From Xestospongia bergquistia (lineage: Eukaryota > Porifera > Demospongiae > Haplosclerida > Petrosiidae), in contig OZ014422.1 of NCBI GenBank assembly GCA_963965975.1, positions 1,984,001-2,048,000 on the forward strand: 64,000 bases of DNA, given 5' to 3'. Made by a program: the position numbers and the translations under genes. Positions 1-63,846 of this stretch are shown here, in pieces. Every line of letters starts with the position of its first letter. Positions within the stretch are counted from its first letter, which is position 1. The notes beneath the pieces were generated by a model that did no database searches, was not told the DNA's origin, and saw only the letters and a list, made by a program, of their open reading frames with translations.

Positions 1-3000
1 TTAACAGAAAATGTGTCAAAAAATGTTTCGGCTACTGAAACAGTGACTATATCAAGTGAACTAGTTGACACTAGTGTAGTAAAGATTGAAACCATGAGGC
101 CAGGTATTATAGTTTCTACTTCTCTCTCAGCTGTTGAAGGACAGATTACAACTGTAACTAAACCAGTGGGTACTACAACTTTAGCTCCAACACCAACAGT
201 ACCTGATACTTTAACCACCACAGCTACTGAACCAGTGGATACAACTTTAGCTCCAAGACCAACAGTACCTGATACTTTAACTACCACAGCTACTGAACCA
301 GTGGATACAACTTTAGCTTCAAGACCAACAATACCTGATACTCTAACTACCACAGCTACTGAACCAGTGGATACAACTTTAGCTCCAAGACCAACAGTAC
401 CTGATACTTTAACTACTACAACTAATGAACCAGTGGATACAACTTTAGCTCCAAAACCAACAGTACCTGATACTACAGCTACTGAACCAGTAGATACTAC
501 AACATTAGCTCCAAAATCAACAGTACCTGATACCATCACTTTAGCTCCATCATTAACAGAAAGTGTGTCAAAAAATGTTTCGGCTACTGAAACAGTGACT
601 ATATCAAGTGAACTAGTTGACACTAGTGTAGTAAAGATTGAAACCATGAGGCCAGGTATTATAGTTTCTACTTCTCTCTCAGCTGTTGAAGGACAGATTA
701 CAACTGTAACTAAACCAGTGGGTACTACAACTTTAGCTCCAACACCAACAGTACCTGATACTTTAACCACCACAGCTACTGAACCAGTGGATACAACTTT
801 AGCTCCAAGACCAACAATACCTGATACTCTAACTACCACAGCTACTGAACCAGTGGATACAACTTTAGCTCCAAGACCAACAGTACCTGATACTTTAACT
901 ACTACAACTACTGAACCAGTGGATACAACTTTAGCTCCAAAACCAACAGTACCTGATACTACAGCTACTGAACCAGTAGATACTACAACATTAGCTCCAA
1001 AATCAACAGTACCTGATACCATCACTTTAGCTCCATCATTAACAGAAAGTGTGTCAAAAAATGTTTCGGCTACTGAAACAGTGACTATATCAAGTGAACT
1101 AGTTGACACTAGTGTAGTAAAGATTGAAACCATGAGGCCAGGTATTATAGTTTCTACTTCTCTCTCAGCTGTTGAAGGACAGATTACAACTGTAACTAAA
1201 CCAGTGGATACTACAACTTTAGCTCCAACACCAACAGTACCTGATACTTTAACTACTACAACTTTAGGTCTGAAACCAACAGTACCTGATACTCTAACTA
1301 CTACAACTACTGAACCAGTGGATACAACTTTAGCTCCAAGACCAACAGTACCTGATACTTTAACTACCACAGCAACTGAACCAGTGGATACAACTTTAGC
1401 TCCAAGACCAACAATACCTGATACTTTAACTACCACAGCAACTGAGCCAGTGGATACAACTTTAGCTCCAAGACCAACAGTACCTGATACTTTAACTACT
1501 ACAGCTACTGAACCAGTGGATACAACTTTAGCTCCAAGACCAACAATACCTGATACTTTAACTACCACAGCTACTGAACCAGTGGATACAACTTTAGCTC
1601 CAAGACCAACAGTACCTGATACTTTAACTACCACAGCTACTGAACCAGTGGATACAACTTTAGCTCCAAGACCAACAGTACCTGATACTTTAACTACCAC
1701 AGCTACTGAACCAGTGGATACAACTTTAGCTCCAAGACCAACAATACCTGATACTTTAACTACCACAGCTACTGAACCAGTTGATACAACTTTAGCTCCA
1801 AGACCAACAGTACCTGATACTTTAACTACCACAGCTACTGAACCAGTGGATACAACTTTAGCTTCAAGACCAACAATACCTGATACTCTAACTACCACAG
1901 CTACTGAACCAGTGGATACAACTTTAGCTCCAAGACCAACAGTACCTGATACTTTAACTACTACAACTAATGAACCAGTGGATACAACTTTAGCTCCAAA
2001 ACCAACAGTACCTGATACTACAGCTACTGAACCAGTAGATACTACAACATTAGCTCCAAAATCAACAGTACCTGATACCATCACTTTAGCTCCATCATTA
2101 ACAGAAAGTGTGTCAAAAAATGTTTCGGCTACTGAAACAGTGACTATATCAAGTGAACTAGTTGACACTAGTGTAGTAAAGATTGAAACCATGAGGCCAG
2201 GTATTATAGTTTCTACTTCTCTCTCAGCTGTTGAAGGACAGATTACAACTGTAACTAAACCAGTGGGTACTACAACTTTAGCTCCAACACCAACAGTACC
2301 TGATACTTTAACCACCACAGCTACTGAACCAGTGGATACAACTTTAGCTCCAAGACCAACAGTACCTGATACTTTAACTACTACAACTACTGAACCAGTG
2401 GATACAACTTTAGCTCCAAAACCAACAGTACCTGATACTACAGCTACTGAACCAGTAGATACTACAACATTAGCTCCAAAATCAACAGTACCTGATACCA
2501 TCACTTTAGCTCCATCATTAACAGAAAGTGTGTCAAAAAATGTTTCGGCTACTGAAACAGTGACTATATCAAGTGAACTAGTTGACACTAGTGTAGTAAA
2601 GATTGAAACCATGAGGCCAGGTATTATAGTTTCTACTTCTCTCTCAGCTGTTGAAGGACAGATTACAACTGTAACTAAACCAGTGGATACTACAACTTTA
2701 GCTCCAACACCAACAGTACCTGATACTTTAACTACTACAACTTTAGGTCTGAAACCAACAGTACCTGATACTCTAACTACTACAACTACTGAACCAGTGG
2801 ATACAACTTTAGCTCCAAGACCAACAGTACCTGATACTTTAACTACCACAGCAACTGAACCAGTGGATACAACTTTAGCTCCAAGACCAACAATACCTGA
2901 TACTTTAACTACCACAGCAACTGAGCCAGTGGATACAACTTTAGCTCCAAGACCAACAGTACCTGATACTTTAACTACCACAGCTACTGAACCAGTGGAT

Positions 3001-3700
3001 ACAACTTTAGCTTCAAGACCAACAATACCTGATACTCTAACTACCACAGCTACTGAACCAGTGGATACAACTTTAGCTCCAAGACCAACAGTACCTGATA
3101 CTTTAACTACCACAGCTACTGAACCAGTGGATACAACTTTAGCTCCAAGACCAACAGTACCTGATACTTTAACTACCACAGCTACTGAACCAGTGGATAC
3201 AACTTTAGCTCCAAGACCAACAATACCTGATACTTTAACTACCACAGCTACTGAACCAGTTGATACAACTTTAGCTCCAAGACCAACAGTACCTGATACT
3301 TTAACTACCACAGCTACTGAACCAGTGGATACAACTTTAGCTCCAAGACCAACAATACCTGATACTTTAACTACCACAGCTACTGAACCAGTGGATACAA
3401 CTTTAGCTCCAAGACCAACAGTACCTGATACTTTAACTACCACAGCTACTGAACCAGTGGATACAACTTTAGCTCCAAAATCAACAGTACCTGATACCAT
3501 CACTTTAGCTCCTTCATTAACAGAAAGTGTGTCAAAAAATGTTTCGGCTCCTGAAACAGTGACTATATCAAGTGAACTAGTTGACACTAGTGTAGTAAAG
3601 ATTGAAACCATGAGGCCAGGTGTTATAGTTTCTACTTCTCTCTCAGCTGTTGAAGGACAGATTACAACTGTAACTGAATCAGTGGACATTACTACTTTAT
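1..3700 (+). repeat. Higher-order coding repeat in the mucin-like exon
   Basis: Two repeat levels are visible. The short unit is 66 bp (22 residues, core PVDTTLAPRPTVPDT), tandemly repeated with small variants (V/I, R/K, P/S). A head module of about 60 residues (starting VSKNVSATETVTISSEL) recurs at 13, 565, 1051, 2110, 2530 and 3529. Each copy is followed by a different number of short units. Spacings of 552, 486, 1059, 420 and 999 bp are all multiples of three, so copy-number change keeps the frame. Blocks 1051-2110 and 2530-3529 open almost identically, which suggests recent duplication of a whole block. Confidence 0.95.
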
Positions 3701-4138
3701 CTCTGACACCAACAGTACCTGATGCCACTGCTCTTGGAACAACAATCCCTTCTAAATCTGTAGACACTACTACTACTTCAGTTCTTATACCAACTGTACC
3801 TGATATCACAACTGAAACAACTACTCATACTGTATCAGTCGATGCTACCAATTTCATAACATCTCTATCTGTTCTAATTACTCCAACTCCTACTCCTGTT
3901 TGTGAATGCAATACCAATGGTACAATTGAAGGCAGTCAATGTGATCCATTAGATGAGATGTGCAAATGTAAGGAAAATGTTATTGGCAAAAACTGTGACT
4001 CGTGTGACTCTGGGTACTATGGTTTACATACCATTGGAGAATGCAGATCATGTAGCTGTTGCTCAGTTGGTACTTATGTCTGTGATATGGTAAGGCATTT
4101 CTTCTAATACTAACACTCTAATGGATTTGAGATATTGT

Positions 4139-52951: not shown

Positions 52952-56831
<3,880 letters not shown>

Positions 56832-57083: not shown

Positions 57084-57474
57084 CTAATATTGTACTAATG
57101 TCTCCATCTCTTTAGCCTTTCGTTGACCACAGCACTTTCTCACAGCTCCAATGAGATTATACCATTTGAGATCTGTACATTTTTGAATCATCTTGCGAAT
57201 TGCTATAGTGCTATCTTTATCTCTAATATTTCTCAAACTATCCTGGTCAAGTTTCTTTGAATCCAACTTCTGACCAATTTCCCGCCACTTGTCATCAATG
57301 CCAAGGTGCTTAAATACTTCCACAACACGATCTGGACTTGGAATATCTTTGTCTCTCTCTTTACCATAACTATGGCTTAGTTGAACTAGATGGAAATATT
57401 AATATCAATCATAGCATATTGAGAATATATCATCATGTATTAACAGACACACACAATTATACACTATAGCCTTG

Positions 57475-57526
<52 letters not shown>

Positions 57527-59710
57527 ACTTCAGTGACAGTGACAGTGTTATAATTGTACCATACTACAAACAGAAAATGAACAGAAGCAGGTAACTATTT
57601 CTTTATGGTTCATAAATAAAATATTGCAAAAGTTACTATGGGAAAGTAATTCTTTGATAACCATGGCAACTAGTGGTTCTACCTACTGATTTAAAAATAG
57701 GTCTAAATAAATATCACTTCACTAGAGAAGGTATGTAACACTATACCAGTCCAATACATTATTTAATTTATAATTATTTTATATACCCAATCCATCTTTC
57801 TTTGTTTTATCGTTTACATATAGTTTATAGAATTACCAAACATTTAAAAACTACATTCTCACTTACAACGAGCACCTCTAGGGGTTGCACCCTTAAGTCC
57901 AGTAGAGTTTGAGAGACTTTTCTTCTTAAAATATTCCATTGCATTACTCTGAACTCGTAATGGCTCTATATAATTGAAAATAATTATTATTAACACAATG
58001 TTCTTTACTCACGTTTGAGATACATTAGTCCTGTTGATGCTACATATTGAGATGACATAGTTGAAGGTAGTTGATGTTGTGTTAAATCCAATATTGTTGT
58101 TATTGGAAGGTCGTGTTTATTGATATTATCACATAGATGTTGAGTCCATATGCCACCATTAGTATCACTACCAATACTTCCATTATTGAGATCAGAGATA
58201 GCAGAGATAGCAATGACAACATTTTCACAACTTGGTAATTGGATAGTTCGAGGTGGAGGTGGATCACCTTGTTGAAGACGTAGCTCGAAAAAGAGCATAC
58301 AAGGAAGATAGTTGTGTAGCCTTTGTTGATAGAGTGAGACAATCCAGTCTAAATAGACTTTCTTATCACCAAGTTTAAGATACACACGATGTTGACCATT
58401 AGGATCACAGCTATCACCAGGAGTATCATAACCTCCATAACCAGAGTAATAGAAGGCAAAGAACTTGTAGAATGTAGAGTAGGCAAAGTTAGCAACTGCT
58501 TTGATGATAGCCATTACATTATCACAGTCAACAGCAGTATTTGTATCTTTTATAGTTGCAAAGTTGATGTCTTCTTGTTGAAATAGAACCATCATTTTAT
58601 CTCCATCTTTAGTGAACTCATCTTGAGTAACCACTAACAATGTACCATTACGTTCTTCATTGTCTCCTTCACATTTTGGCTTAACAATATCATTGTACTT
58701 TGATTTGACTAAATTTTCTGTAAACAAAACAATATTAATTGTTATTGTTGTAAATCTGTTAGCTTATAAATTTTAAATACATGATATATTTATTGTTATA
58801 TAAATACAAAATTAATTATATTATTTACCATTGAAGAACAGTTGTCCAGCTAATGAAATATATTGAGGTAACAACTTAGATTCTTGTACTTTTTGATCTT
58901 TAGTTGCTTTAGTTGTTAGATCCAAAATGGCTGTCAAAGGAAGAGCTACTTGAGTAAGATTATTAGATAGACATTGAGTCCATATGCCACCACCAGCATC
59001 ACGACTAGCTTTATTGAGACCAGAGATAGCAATGACAAAGTTATCACAGCATGGCAAAGTAATTGGTCCTACTACATCATTGTCACTGTCACGAAGACAT
59101 AACTCAAAGAAAAGGGCACAAAATGTTAACGGATGAGACATTTTTGCCCGCAATCTTTCCTCAAGGACTTGTAGATTTTGTTTAAACACCCACACAATCC
59201 AGTCTAAATATACTCTTTCTTCAGGTTCTTCTGCTGTGGGAAATTTTGTTAAAATGTATGCCCGCTTATTATCATGATCATAACCTCCATAGCCACTGAA
59301 ATAAAATGCAAATTGTCGATGGAAACATTCTGAAGGAATATACTTCAACATATCAATGAGAGCAAACAGACTATTACAGTCTACATTGCTATTAGTCACA
59401 TATTTAAACCCAAACTTCGTAAAAACCTTTTTCATTGTGAACATATCTTTCGCATCATTTTCACCTTCTGGTGTTTTGAAAAAATCTTTCCCTAATGTCA
59501 CTATGGCAACACCAGAGATCTCAGGATACACTTTGCTACAATCTGCTCCATATGTTTCCCAATTTAATCCAACTTGACCTTCATACTCCTCTTTTGTTAT
59601 GTTTGAAAACTTACGAAGATCATGAGGTTCTTCAATTATCTATATTAGATATAATAAAATATGTCAGCTGTATATAGTTGATATAAACATACCTTGTTCA
59701 CTAAATCCAT
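57084..59710 (-). CDS. Double caspase/paracaspase-like, death-domain protein (copy A)
   Basis: Five exons: 59710-59693 (MDLVNK), 59639-58829, 58717-58013, 57965-57867, 57385-57084, giving 644 aa. Exon 2 is a whole caspase-fold domain: SGVAIVTLGKD, MKKVFTKFGFKYVT, FAFYFSGYGGYD, ERVYLDWIVWVFKQN, FCALFFELCLRDSD, DNFVIAISGLNKAS, GGGIWTQCLSNNL. Exon 3 is a second: FFAFYYSGYGGYD, KVYLDWIVSLYQQ, CMLFFELRLQQGD, GGIWTQHLCDN. Family knowledge: meta- and paracaspases have S/A-G-H-G and a D-x-C active site. Here His is Tyr in both domains (Tyr123 in the first), and in the second the Cys is Arg. The last exon is a death domain: LGIDDKWREIGQKL, LRNIRDKDSTIAIRKMIQKC, LKWYNLIGAVRK. Probably a pseudoenzyme scaffold in death or immune signalling (inference). 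Confidence 0.82.
57475..57523. repeat. (TA)n microsatellite in copy A intron
   Basis: About 48 bp of alternating A and T in the 481-nt intron before the death-domain exon. Confidence 0.95.
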
Positions 59711-60087
59711 CTCTATACTGGTTTGAAGGGGTGTTGAAGTAGTTGTACTAATAATGTGTGGATAGGTCCTAGAGTGGGATTTTTAAAGTTTCTGGTTATT
59801 ATAATGAGATTCACAGGTCTTAATTAAATTCTTATCTGATGATATAATGGTAACGCCCTTATGTGAGCCTCAAATAGATGACACTTTTCTACATATATAA
59901 TATCTTACCTCAGTAGATATATACTGATATGCATTGTTTTTTTTCCAGTGACTACCAATGTTAGCTAATTTCAGAATCAAATTATTAGTAAACAATTTGG
60001 ATCAACAACAATATTCAATTAATGTTTAATTATTGGATAAAGGATATTTACATTATTATTGTTATCTAAAAGTGAGACATCTAATTT
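59711..60087. promoter_or_regulatory. Promoter region of copy A, duplicated with the gene
   Basis: Sequence just upstream of the copy A start (for example gattcacaggtcttaattaa and gatgatataatggtaacg, then atgtgagcctca) is repeated upstream of copy C near 63890-63965, and partly upstream of copy B near 61370-61480. The duplicated unit therefore includes 5' flanking DNA. Confidence 0.6.
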
Positions 60088-61234
60088 CTAATTACTTCTG
60101 ATTACACACTTTTCACAACAAATGTGAGGTTTGTTTTCTCGGAAGCTCCTTATCTCTTTAACCTTTTTCTCACCACCAACGGTATGAACTGCTCCAGTAA
60201 TATTATACCACTTGAGATCTTTACATTTTGAAACCATCAATTTAATGGCTACATTATCTTCACCTCTAATGTTTTTCAATTTACTTTCTTCAAGCAATTT
60301 ATTGGAGACCAATACCTCACCAATTTTCCACCACTTATCAGCAATGTCAAGATAATTTAATGCTTCAACAACATGACCAGGACAAGGTTTGTCTTCACCT
60401 TTATAATATTTACCTATGTGATAATAGTAATCCTTATGATGAGGCACAATTTTAATAGATCTATGTAACTTAAATCATTTATATAAAATGCATTAAAAGT
60501 ATGGGTTTCAAAGTTTAAAGTTTAAGGTTCAGGATTTAGATTCAGGAATTAAGATTTCTATTATGGTCAGATCCATTGACACAATAGTAATAAACCTGTT
60601 GACAATCCACTTGTAATTCTATCATCAAACTTACTCTAATTACATTCATGGAAATATTAAATAACTAAAGAAAGGATCTCTCAATATTTACCAGTTACAG
60701 CAGGTGTAGCACCTGTAAGTCCAGTAGTACCTGTACCACTTATAAAAGATGGACTTGAGAGAGTGCTCCTAAAATATTTCACTGCTTCATCATAAAGACG
60801 TAATGGTAAATGAAGTAATGGGGGCTCTATATAATTGAAAATTATTATTAACACAATGTTCTTTACTCACGTTTGAGATACATTAGTCCTGTTGAAACAG
60901 ACTATTACAGACTACATTGCTATTAGTCACATATTTAAACCCAAACTTCTTAAAAACTTCTTTCATCATATTCATATTTTTATCATCTTCTGGTGTTTTG
61001 AAAGGATCTTTCCCTAATGTCACTATAGCAACACCAGAGATCTCAGGATATACTTTACTACAATCTGCTCCATATGTATCCCAATTTAATCCAACTTGAC
61101 CTTCATACTCCTTTGTTGTTATGTTTGAAAACTTACAAAGATCATCAGGTTTTTTAATTATCTATATTAGATATAATAAAATATGTCAGCTGTATATATA
61201 GTTTATATAAACATACCTTGTTCACTAAATCCAT
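60088..61234 (-). pseudogene. Copy B of the array: internal deletion and frameshift
   Basis: Pieces: 61234-61217 (MDLVNK), a fused exon 61161-60871, 60826-60692, and 60413-60088 (death domain). In the fused exon the first caspase-like domain runs normally from IIKKPDDLCKF to NSNVVCNSLF. It then jumps near 60895 to the last nine codons of what is exon 3 in copies A and C. About 1.25 kb is missing compared with copy A, including both active-site regions. The joint is out of frame and gives an early TAA a few codons later. Linker and death domain (GKYYKGEDKPCPG, LDIADKWWKIGEVL, RGEDNVAIKLMVSKC) are still open, with intact splice sites. As it stands it could make only a 105-aa fragment. Confidence 0.75.
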
Positions 61235-61658
61235 CTCTATACTGGTTTGAAGGGGTGTTGAAGTAGCTGTACTAATAATATGTGGCTGGGTTCGTTTCTT
61301 ACTCGAGTGGGATTTTTTAAAGCTTCTGGTTATTTTCACAGGTTTTTTATCTGGCAATATGATATATAGTAACACCCTTATGTAATATGATATATAGTGA
61401 TGCCCTTATTGTGAGCCTCTTAGTCAGCAAGTTGTTGTAGATGACAAACACTTTATTACATATACAACATCTTACTTCAGTAGATGTATACGCAAATACA
61501 TTGTTTTTAATGACTACCAATGTTAGCTAATTTCAGAATTAAATTATTAGTAAACAATTTGGAAATCAACAACAATATTTATTCAATCAATGTATAGTTA
61601 TTGGATAAAGGAGATTTACTTACATATTATTATTGTTATCTAATAGTGACACACCTAA
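61235..61658. other. Spacer between array copies B and C
   Basis: Holds the duplicated upstream DNA of copy B and the 3' end of copy C. Close to the spacer 59711-60087 in sequence. No separate gene. Confidence 0.6.
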
Positions 61659-63846
61659 TTAATAATTACTATACTTTCCACAACATGTGTGAGGTTTGTT
61701 TTCTCGGAAGGTCCTTATCTCTTCAGCCTTTTCCTCACCACCAACAATACAAACTACTCCAGTAATAATGTACCACTTGAGATTTTCACATTTGGAAACC
61801 ATCAATTTAATAGCTGCATTATTTTCACCTCTGATGTTTCTCAATTCGCTCTCTTTAAGGAATTTATTGGAGACCAATACCTCACCAATTTCCCGCCACT
61901 TATCAGCAATGTCAAGATAATTTAATGCTTCAACAACATGGCCAGGACAAGGTTCATCTTCACCTTTATAATATTTACCTATGTGATAATAGTAATCCTC
62001 ATGATGAGAGGATCTCTCAATACTTACCAGGTGTAGCACCTGTAAGTCTAGTACCACTTATACCAGGTGGACTTGAAAGAGTGCTCCAAAAACAATTGAC
62101 TGCTTCCCTATGAAGACGTAATGGGGGCTCTATATAATTGAAAATAATTATTAATAATACAATGTTTTTTACTCACGTTTGAGATACATTAGTCCTGTTG
62201 ATGCTATATATTGAGATGACATAGTTGAAGGTAGTAGATTTCGTGTTAAATCCAATATTGTCGTTATTGGAAGGTCGTGTTTCTTAATATTATCACATAG
62301 ATGTTGAGTCCATATGCCACCATTAGTATCACGACCAATACTTACATTATTGAGACCAGAGATAGCAATGACAATGTTGTCACAACTTGGTAATTGGATA
62401 GTTGGAGGTGGATCATCTTGTTGAAGACATAGCTCAAAAAAGAGCATACAAGGAAGATAGTTGTGTAGCCTTTGCTGATAGAGTGAGACAATCCAGTCTA
62501 AATAGACTTTCTTATCACCAAGTTTAAGATACACACGATGTTGACCATTAGGATCACAGCTATCACCAGGAGTATCATAACCTCCATAACCAGAGTAATA
62601 GAAGGCAAAGAACTTGTAGAATGTAGAGTAGGCAAAGTTAGCAACTGCTTTGATGATAGCCATTACATTATCACAGTCAACAGCAGTACTTGTATCTTTT
62701 ATAGTTGCAAAGTTGATGTCTTCTTGTTGAAATAGAACCATCATTTTATCTCCATCTTTAGTGAACTCATCTTGAGTAACCACTAACAATGTACCATTAC
62801 GTTCTTCATTGTCTCCTTCACATTTTGGCTTAACAATATCATTGTACTTTGATTTGACTAAATTTTCTGTAAACAAACAATACTAATTGTTATTGTTGTA
62901 AATCTGTTAGTTCATAAATTTTAAATACATAATATATTTATTGTTATATAAATACAAAATTAATTATATTACTTACCATTGAAGAACAGCTGTCCAGCTA
63001 ATGAAACATATTGAGGTAACAACTTAGATTGTTGTACTACTTGATCTTTAGTTGTTAGATCTAAAATGGCTGTCAAAGGAAGATTACGATGAGCTACTTG
63101 AGTAAGATTATTAGATAGACGTTGAGTCCATATGCCACCATCAGCATTACGACTGATACTAGCTTTATTGAGACCAGAGATAGCAACAACAAAGTTATCA
63201 CAGCATGGCAAAGTAATTGGTCCTACTACATCATTGTCACTGTCACGAAGACATAACTCAAAGAAAAGAGCACAAAATGGAAGGCATTTTCTTTTTTGAA
63301 GGACTTGTAGATTTTGTTTAAACACCCACACAATCCAGTCTAAATATACTCTTTCTTCAGGTTCTTCTGTTGTGGGAAATTTTGTTAAAATATATGCCCG
63401 CTTATTAACACGATCATAACCTCCATAGCCACTGAAATAAAATGCAAACTGTCGATGGAAACATTCTGAAGGAATATACTTTAACATATCAATGAGAGCA
63501 AACAGACTATTACAGTCTACATTGCTATTAGTCACATGTTTAAACCCAAACTTCTTAAAAACCTTTTTCATTCTGAGCATATCTTTCGCATCTTTATCAT
63601 CTTCTGTTGTTTTGAAAGAATCTTTCCCTAATGTCACTATGGCAACACCAGAGATCTCAGGATACACTTTACTACAATCTGCTCCATATACATTCAAATT
63701 TAATCCAACTTGACCTTCATAGTCCTCTGTTGTTATGTTTGAAAACTTATGAAGATCATGAGGTTCTTCAATTATCTATATTAGAGATAATAAAATATGT
63801 CAGCTGTATATAGTTGATATAAACATACCTTGTTCACTAAATCCAT
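61659..63846 (-). CDS. Double caspase/paracaspase-like, death-domain protein (copy C)
   Basis: Five exons mirroring copy A: 63846-63829, 63775-62977, 62866-62177, 62129-62028, 61978-61659, giving 642 aa. First caspase-like domain: SGVAIVTLGKD, FAFYFSGYGGYD (Tyr123 at the His position), FCALFFELCLRDSD, GGIWTQRLSNNL. Second: FFAFYYSGYGGYD, CMLFFELCLQQDD (Cys kept, unlike copy A), GGIWTQHLCDNIKKHDLPIT. Linker LTGATP. Death domain: CPGHVVEALNYLDIADKWRE, SELRNIRGENNAAIKLMVSK, and a Cys-containing end (HTCCGKYSNY). The last intron is only 49 nt. Exons 2 and 3 are nearly identical to copy A at the DNA level, while the death domain exon is closer to copy B than to copy A. That indicates gene conversion or a stepwise duplication. 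Confidence 0.83.

What the first reader, a model, noticed from the sequence alone, without database searches (positions are those of the whole stretch)
57084..63846. Tandem array of proteins with two caspase/paracaspase-like domains and a C-terminal death domain
The sequence shows three head-to-tail units with identical five-exon plans: a 6-codon start exon, one exon per caspase-like domain, a linker exon and a death-domain exon. Two caspase folds followed by a death domain is not an architecture I know. MALT1 has the death domain first and one caspase domain. The FYYSGYGGYD, LFFELC and GGIWTQ blocks look closer to para/metacaspases (YYAGHGY, LLDMC, NGIF) than to classic caspases.
Basis: partly seen in the sequence, partly recalled or inferred. 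Interest (0 to 1): 0.88.

Follow-up and report, generated by a model that had tools for sequence, protein, structure and literature searches.

The report
Tandem double pseudo-caspase death-domain genes
An animal genome carries a fast-changing cluster of genes whose proteins join two caspase-shaped domains, both with a broken active site, to a death domain, so they look like built-in regulators of cell-death or immune proteases, not proteases.

Summary
The finding is real but needs correcting. The genes lie on the minus strand. The window holds two full units (A, 642 aa; C, 644 aa), each with five exons and GT-AG introns; the middle unit (B) is truncated, so 'three identical units' is wrong. 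The array has eight units over 22 kb, mostly outside the window; at least four are broken. Domain 1 models as a caspase fold, domain 2 is its homologue, and the C-terminal exon models as a death fold that Pfam misses. The D-C-Cys motif became E-L-Cys/Tyr/Arg/Ser and the p20/p10 linker halved (11-15 against 18-32 residues). All 34 scored His-type relatives keep His, D-C-Cys and the long linker. So these are tandem pseudo-caspases. The pair also occurs in one frame in a protein not found in this genome, probably from another species. Fold and profile lists are headed by true caspases, not para/metacaspases. Best guess: death-domain-recruited, c-FLIP-like regulators of intact-dyad C14-death paralogues in the same genome. 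Coral caspase-X (inactive plus active caspase) is the closest precedent. No transcript or activity was tested.

The parts
63829..63846 (-). Unit A exon 1, six-codon start exon (MDLVNK)
   Evidence: GT-AG intron follows
62977..63775 (-). Unit A exon 2, pseudo-caspase domain 1; catalytic-His position Tyr (codon 63425-63427), Cys kept (63251-63253)
   Evidence: Pfam PF00656 22.5 bits; AF2 model and PDB matches; codons
62177..62866 (-). Unit A exon 3, pseudo-caspase domain 2; Tyr (62586-62588), Cys kept (62427-62429)
   Evidence: PF00656 23.6 bits; codons
62028..62129 (-). Unit A exon 4, linker
   Evidence: spliced model
61659..61978 (-). Unit A exon 5, death-fold domain and stop
61217..61234 (-). 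Unit B exon 1
60870..61161 (-). Unit B, 5' part of domain-1 exon fused out of frame to the last codons of the domain-2 exon; 98 aa then stop (low end approximate)
60088..60413 (-). Unit B death exon (open, 76% identical to unit A's)
59693..59710 (-). Unit C exon 1
58829..59639 (-). Unit C exon 2, pseudo-caspase domain 1; Tyr (59289-59291), Cys kept (59097-59099)
   Evidence: PF00656 20.7 bits, just under the cut-off; codons
58013..58717 (-). Unit C exon 3, pseudo-caspase domain 2; Tyr (58437-58439), catalytic Cys is Arg (58278-58280)
   Evidence: PF00656 20.4 bits, just under the cut-off; codons
57867..57965 (-). Unit C exon 4, linker
57084..57385 (-). Unit C exon 5, divergent death-fold domain (45% identical to unit A's) and stop

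Best explanation
Each intact gene encodes a double pseudo-caspase with a C-terminal death domain. SHOWN by sequence and model: two homologous caspase-like domains (fold modelled for domain 1), His to Tyr in both, D-C-C changed to E-L-C/R/Y/S, a shortened p20/p10 linker, a C-terminal death fold, and C14-death genes with an intact dyad in the same genome. INFERRED: the death domain brings the protein into a death-domain assembly shared with the intact C14-death paralogues. There the pseudo-caspase pair, unable to cut or be processed, offers caspase dimer surfaces. It acts as a c-FLIP-like partner that blocks or tunes activation of the intact paralogues, or as a covalently tethered mock caspase dimer. 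Birth-and-death turnover of the array fits immune or self/non-self signalling.
Against: No transcript, protein or activity was examined. The 17 Tyr rows are few events: they include this genome's own copies and collapse to 12 clusters at 90% identity and 6 at 70%. dN/dS between array copies is high (domain 1 0.52-0.90; domain 2 0.46-1.80 on few changes), so constraint is weak or recent. At least four of eight units are broken. Against a broad set of 16 Death domains of this genome the death exons match only weakly (probability 6.9, E 0.005). Many other C14 genes of this genome lack the dyad, so loss of the dyad there need not mean a c-FLIP role.
Confidence: 0.45

Rival explanations
1. Pure death-domain scaffold: the pseudo-caspase pair is a binding module in a death-domain hub (for example below NLRs) and does not act on any caspase.
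For: 150 Death matches scored in this genome of 983 candidates (lower bound), so many possible partners; lineage-specific mixing of death-like domains in the sponge Amphimedon is described in PMC8195603 (passages).
Against: The nearest relatives outside the Tyr clade have an intact dyad (34 of 34), and two examined in this genome are C14-death genes, which makes a caspase partner the simpler guess.
Confidence: 0.25
2. Decaying cluster: the genes are duplicates drifting after loss of catalysis, with no present function.
For: Stops, frame breaks, deletions or fragments in at least 4 of 8 units (B, U1, U3, U5) and dN/dS near 0.5-1.
Against: Three units (U2, A, C) keep complete frames of 640-644 codons. 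The signature and the pair are shared with P0001 at about 44% identity over a domain, far for drifting open frames. The same replacements occur in both domains.
Confidence: 0.17
3. Decoys that bind pathogen caspase inhibitors or proteases and so protect the intact enzymes.
For: Fast turnover, high dN/dS and many copies; 50 of 87 scored C14 places elsewhere in this genome lack one or both dyad residues.
Against: No pathogen partner known; the same data fit regulation.
Confidence: 0.08
4. Still proteases: the remaining Cys works with another base.
For: Cys kept in 11 of 17 Tyr rows and in 3 of 4 full window domains.
Against: His is lost in 17 of 17; Cys is Tyr, Arg or Ser in 6 of 17, including one domain of P0001; the processing linker is halved.
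Confidence: 0.05

Closest known systems
Coral caspase-X (Acropora; PMC4715348, passages read)
   Same: Two caspase domains in one polypeptide, one catalytically dead; several paralogues; single-domain sister clade judged active; c-FLIP/caspase-8-like pairing proposed from a model
   Different: There one domain is active, and no death domain appears in the passages; here both domains are dead and a C-terminal death domain is present. The paper says caspase-X may be restricted to corals and mentions unverified database entries with more than one caspase domain plus CARD or DD
c-FLIP(L), vertebrate pseudo-caspase (PMC7586951, passages read)
   Same: Catalytic His and Cys positions replaced in a caspase fold joined to death-superfamily domains; active paralogue exists
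   Different: One pseudo-caspase domain and tandem DEDs; substitutions are Arg/Tyr, not Tyr/(Cys, Tyr, Arg, Ser); vertebrate gene
MALT1, type 1 paracaspase (PMC5978004, passages read)
   Same: Death domain plus caspase-like domain in one protein
   Different: MALT1 has an N-terminal death domain, Ig domains and one active caspase-like domain; the paper gives porifera only type 2 paracaspases, which lack these domains
Single-domain C14-death genes of the same genome (L014, L015)
   Same: Related C14 exon with phase-1 donor (by eye); death exon at the C terminus
   Different: One C14 domain, intact His and D-C-Cys, longer p20/p10 linker
Bacterial pseudo-orthocaspases (PMC6426788, passages read)
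   Same: His to Tyr, often with the Cys replaced, in whole clades; a trypanosome pseudo-metacaspase with Tyr/Ser is mentioned too
   Different: Prokaryotic p20 proteins; no death domain mentioned in the passages; acidic pocket residues kept, here D before the Cys became E
Gingipain R (a passage of PMC4626109 describes an inactivated subdomain A covalently linked to the active one; protein name taken from another passage and recall)
   Same: Covalently linked inactive caspase-like domain forming a caspase-dimer-like pair
   Different: Partner domain is active; bacterial; no death domain (recalled)

Membership tests
Peptidase_C14 / caspase fold | Caspase fold and Pfam PF00656 similarity | tested here: met
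Peptidase_C14 as active enzyme | His-Cys catalytic dyad | tested here: not met
   Tyr at the His position in 17 of 17 scored rows of this clade and 13 of 13 array sites; Cys in 11 of 17; codons in the window
Death-domain superfamily | Six-helix death fold, related to PF00531 | tested here: met
c-FLIP | Pseudo-caspase domain lacking His and/or Cys | tested here: met
c-FLIP | N-terminal tandem DEDs | tested here: not met
   Exon 1 is 6 codons and domain 1 follows directly; the one death fold found is C-terminal
Coral caspase-X | Inactive caspase domain followed by an active one | tested here: not met
   Both domains have Tyr for His
MALT1-type paracaspase | N-terminal death domain and Ig domains before one paracaspase domain | tested here: not met
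   Order is C14-C14-death; no Ig hit in the exons scanned (linker exon not scanned)
Para/metacaspase versus caspase | Closer sequence or fold match to para/metacaspases than to caspases | tested here: inconclusive
   Rows listed are all caspases, but lists are cut at 60 or 50 rows; the intact relative L015 matches caspase-8 best (E 3.8e-4) and MALT1 from 0.018
c-FLIP-like regulator | Binds and modulates an active caspase paralogue | not testable with these tools
   Needs biochemistry

The most novel reading that the evidence does not exclude
These proteins are ready-made mock caspase dimers: two dead caspase folds covalently joined and delivered by a death domain to poison or template active C14-death enzymes. 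That would be a c-FLIP-like control layer evolved independently in an early-branching animal and expanded as a fast-evolving immune cluster.
Probability: 0.3. Interest if true: 0.78.

Novelty: new variant of a known kind. Interest (0 to 1): 0.58.

Why it matters
Pseudo-caspases are few in well-studied animals: the abstract of PMC7586951 calls FLIP(L) the only human one (listing), and PMC11121540 adds caspase-12 (passages). A clade of double pseudo-caspases with a death domain, beside intact C14-death paralogues, would suggest that control of caspase-like proteases by dead copies arose more than once and also in an early-branching animal. It gives a defined pair of genes for direct binding and inhibition tests. 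The genome-wide count, 50 of 87 scored C14 places without the full dyad, suggests a larger pattern.

Tried and rejected
Three identical units: rejected; unit B is truncated. Active protease: unlikely. Separate genes for the two domains: not favoured. Domain 1 has no stop before its donor, the start-exon sequence occurs only upstream of domain 1 in the window (3 places), and P0001 reads both domains in one frame, by eye through an in-frame intron. Para/metacaspase closeness: not supported by rankings, which are cut lists; VIA rows shown for domain 1 hold no MALT1 or metacaspase, which is not evidence of absence. A single-sequence PDB search with unit C domain 1 gave no hit at E up to 1. The death exons gave no Pfam hit at E up to 10 and no Foldseek hit at E 0.001, though the leading rows were mostly death-superfamily. 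The PF00531 labels on P0064 and P0066 I had first taken as support; they are circular, since L014's Death exon was a row of the query, so I ran instead (L014 type left out of the query profile): strong to the L014 type, weak to the broad set. The first tree had long branches; S_L013a and P0029 were left out of the second, so L013a is not placed there. The C4 copy has a frame break in domain 2 and a different C-terminal exon, not scanned. Rows skipped in the signature count: P0028, P0041, P0044 (fragments or misaligned). Five Tyr rows are near-exact copies of this genome's own exons (P0002, P0003, P0004, P0008, P0009, at least 99.5%). Expression under immune challenge: a sponge study (PMC6208332, passages) lists death-domain genes that change, but nothing could be mapped to these genes. 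Prior description of this architecture: in the titles and abstract starts listed (lists cut at 10-30 rows; open-licence papers only) I saw none in sponges.

Full report
The window is bases 1984001-2048000 of contig C12 of a 146 Mb, 21-contig genome. All genes of the finding are on the minus strand.

GENES. Splicing unit A (exons 63846-63829, 63775-62977, 62866-62177, 62129-62028, 61978-61659) gives 642 codons and a stop. Unit C (59710-59693, 59639-58829, 58717-58013, 57965-57867, 57385-57084) gives 644 codons. All 8 introns are GT-AG. Unit B starts alike, but its domain-1 exon breaks off after 'CNSLF' and is fused out of frame to the last codons of the domain-2 exon, so it stops after 98 residues, although its death exon is still open.

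ARRAY. Searching the genome with the exons shows eight units between C12:2041084 and 2063440, of which the window holds the last three. Outside the window, U2 has a full 640-codon frame. U4 is open in both domains, but only with an additional short intron in domain 1; its full model was not completed. U1 has a stop in domain 2 and a frame break in the death exon. U5 has a frame break in domain 1 and no start exon found. U3 is a domain-1 fragment. In U2 and U4 an A-type death exon lies after the C-type one; I do not know whether it is used. Further copies lie on contig C4 and at C12:2128-2131 kb. dN/dS between array domain-1 exons is 0.52-0.90 (10 pairs); for domain 2 it is 0.46-1.80 (15 pairs), on at most 7 synonymous changes. 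By eye, the U4, C4 and L015 C14 exons begin after a phase-1 intron, as domain 2 does, and the domain-1, domain-2, L014 and L015 exons end before a phase-1 intron. A symmetric exon of this kind can be duplicated in frame, so tandem exon duplication is the likely origin of the pair (inference).

LOST ACTIVE SITE. In the array, 13 of 13 sites of the motif read SGYGG: 7 in domain-1 exons (A, C, U1-U5) and 6 in domain-2 exons (A, C, U1, U2, U4, U5); B has lost the site. An alignment of four window exons, the C14 exons of L013-L015, the 44 proteins and the two halves of P0001 has 54 rows. Three could not be scored. Of the other 51, 17 have Tyr at the catalytic His and 34 have His. The 17 Tyr rows have Cys 11, Tyr 4, Arg 1 or Ser 1 at the catalytic Cys, with EL (16) or QL (1) before it, and 11-15 residues from there to the Pro before the next strand. 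The 34 His rows all have Cys, all have DC before it, and 18-32 residues. The rows are related, and some are this genome's own copies: the Tyr rows collapse to 12 clusters at 90% identity and 6 at 70%, the His rows to 31 and 17. So this is one or few events, not 17. In trees Tyr and His rows lie on two sides of one branch with 100/100 support, with all columns (39 rows) and with both motif blocks left out (37 rows). That the His-Cys dyad carries catalysis and is lost in pseudo-forms is described in PMC7586951 and PMC6426788 (passages). That both domains are inactive follows from this knowledge and was not measured.

SECOND GENOME. One full-length hit, P0001 (456 aa), has two C14 domains in one frame, both SGYGG, with Tyr and Cys at the catalytic Cys position respectively. 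Its best matches in this genome are 44% over a whole domain and 46-57% over shorter pieces, so it comes from another species or from a gene missing here. Its domains fall with domain 1 and domain 2 respectively in the second tree (87/81; holding domain 2 together is not rejected, AU p 0.55), which suggests but does not show that the pair is older than the split. P0001 shows no death domain. P0017, an intact-dyad C14 protein, sits on a contig of the same length (859,900 bases), so probably on the same contig.

CONTEXT. This genome has 106 PF00656 matches and at least 150 Death matches. I fetched 94 places (6 matches already in hand left out, split matches merged) and read the dyad columns from one best fragment each on an uncurated alignment. 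Of 87 places with a letter in both columns, 37 have His and Cys, and 50 lack one or both. In two big arrays (C11:6283-6473 kb, 20 places; C12:5395-5543 kb, 14 places) no place shows both. Loss of the dyad is therefore common here; what is special to the finding is the tandem pair with a death domain.

MECHANISM. I favour a c-FLIP-like or mock-dimer regulator recruited by the death domain to the assemblies of intact C14-death paralogues (confidence 0.45). The parts are shown; recruitment, pairing and the sign of the effect are inferred. Coral caspase-X is the nearest tested precedent: the full protein kills less than its active domain alone (PMC4715348, passages). Rivals are a pure scaffold, decay, decoy, and residual protease.

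NOVELTY. New variant of a known kind. Ten literature searches were run; none of the titles and abstract starts listed described this architecture in sponges, and the lists are cut. PMC4715348 itself notes unverified database entries with more than one caspase domain combined with CARD or DD, so the architecture may exist as unnamed predictions.

Noticed in passing
G000 C11:6283-6473 kb (20 places) and C12:5395-5543 kb (14 places), within L037-L102: Two large arrays of C14 genes in the same genome in which none of the 34 places read shows both catalytic His and Cys (for example DN, DS, PN, AG); separate from the array studied. Architecture of the full genes not examined.
   Followed up: partly
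C12:2057293-2056979 and C12:2051381-2051067: In units U2 and U4 an A-type death exon lies downstream of the C-type death exon, a possible alternative last exon or a remnant of a lost unit.
   Followed up: no
L011 (C4:2483237-2479500): C4 copy has both domains, a frame break in domain 2 and a different C-terminal exon with a death-like pattern (judged by eye).
   Followed up: no
window 53200-55900: Minus-strand WD40-repeat sequence (PF00400 22.7 bits, below cut-off, one exon scanned) next to a short exon that reads like an F-box by eye: perhaps an FBXW-type gene beside the array.
   Followed up: partly
window 1-4107: Open frame of 1368 aa on + (EGF_laminin near its end) and 1274 aa on - over nearly the same bases, with strong GC skew; the overlap was not explained.
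   Followed up: no
window 55607-55736 and 57476-57523: Perfect (GA)65 and (TA)24 repeats.
   Followed up: no
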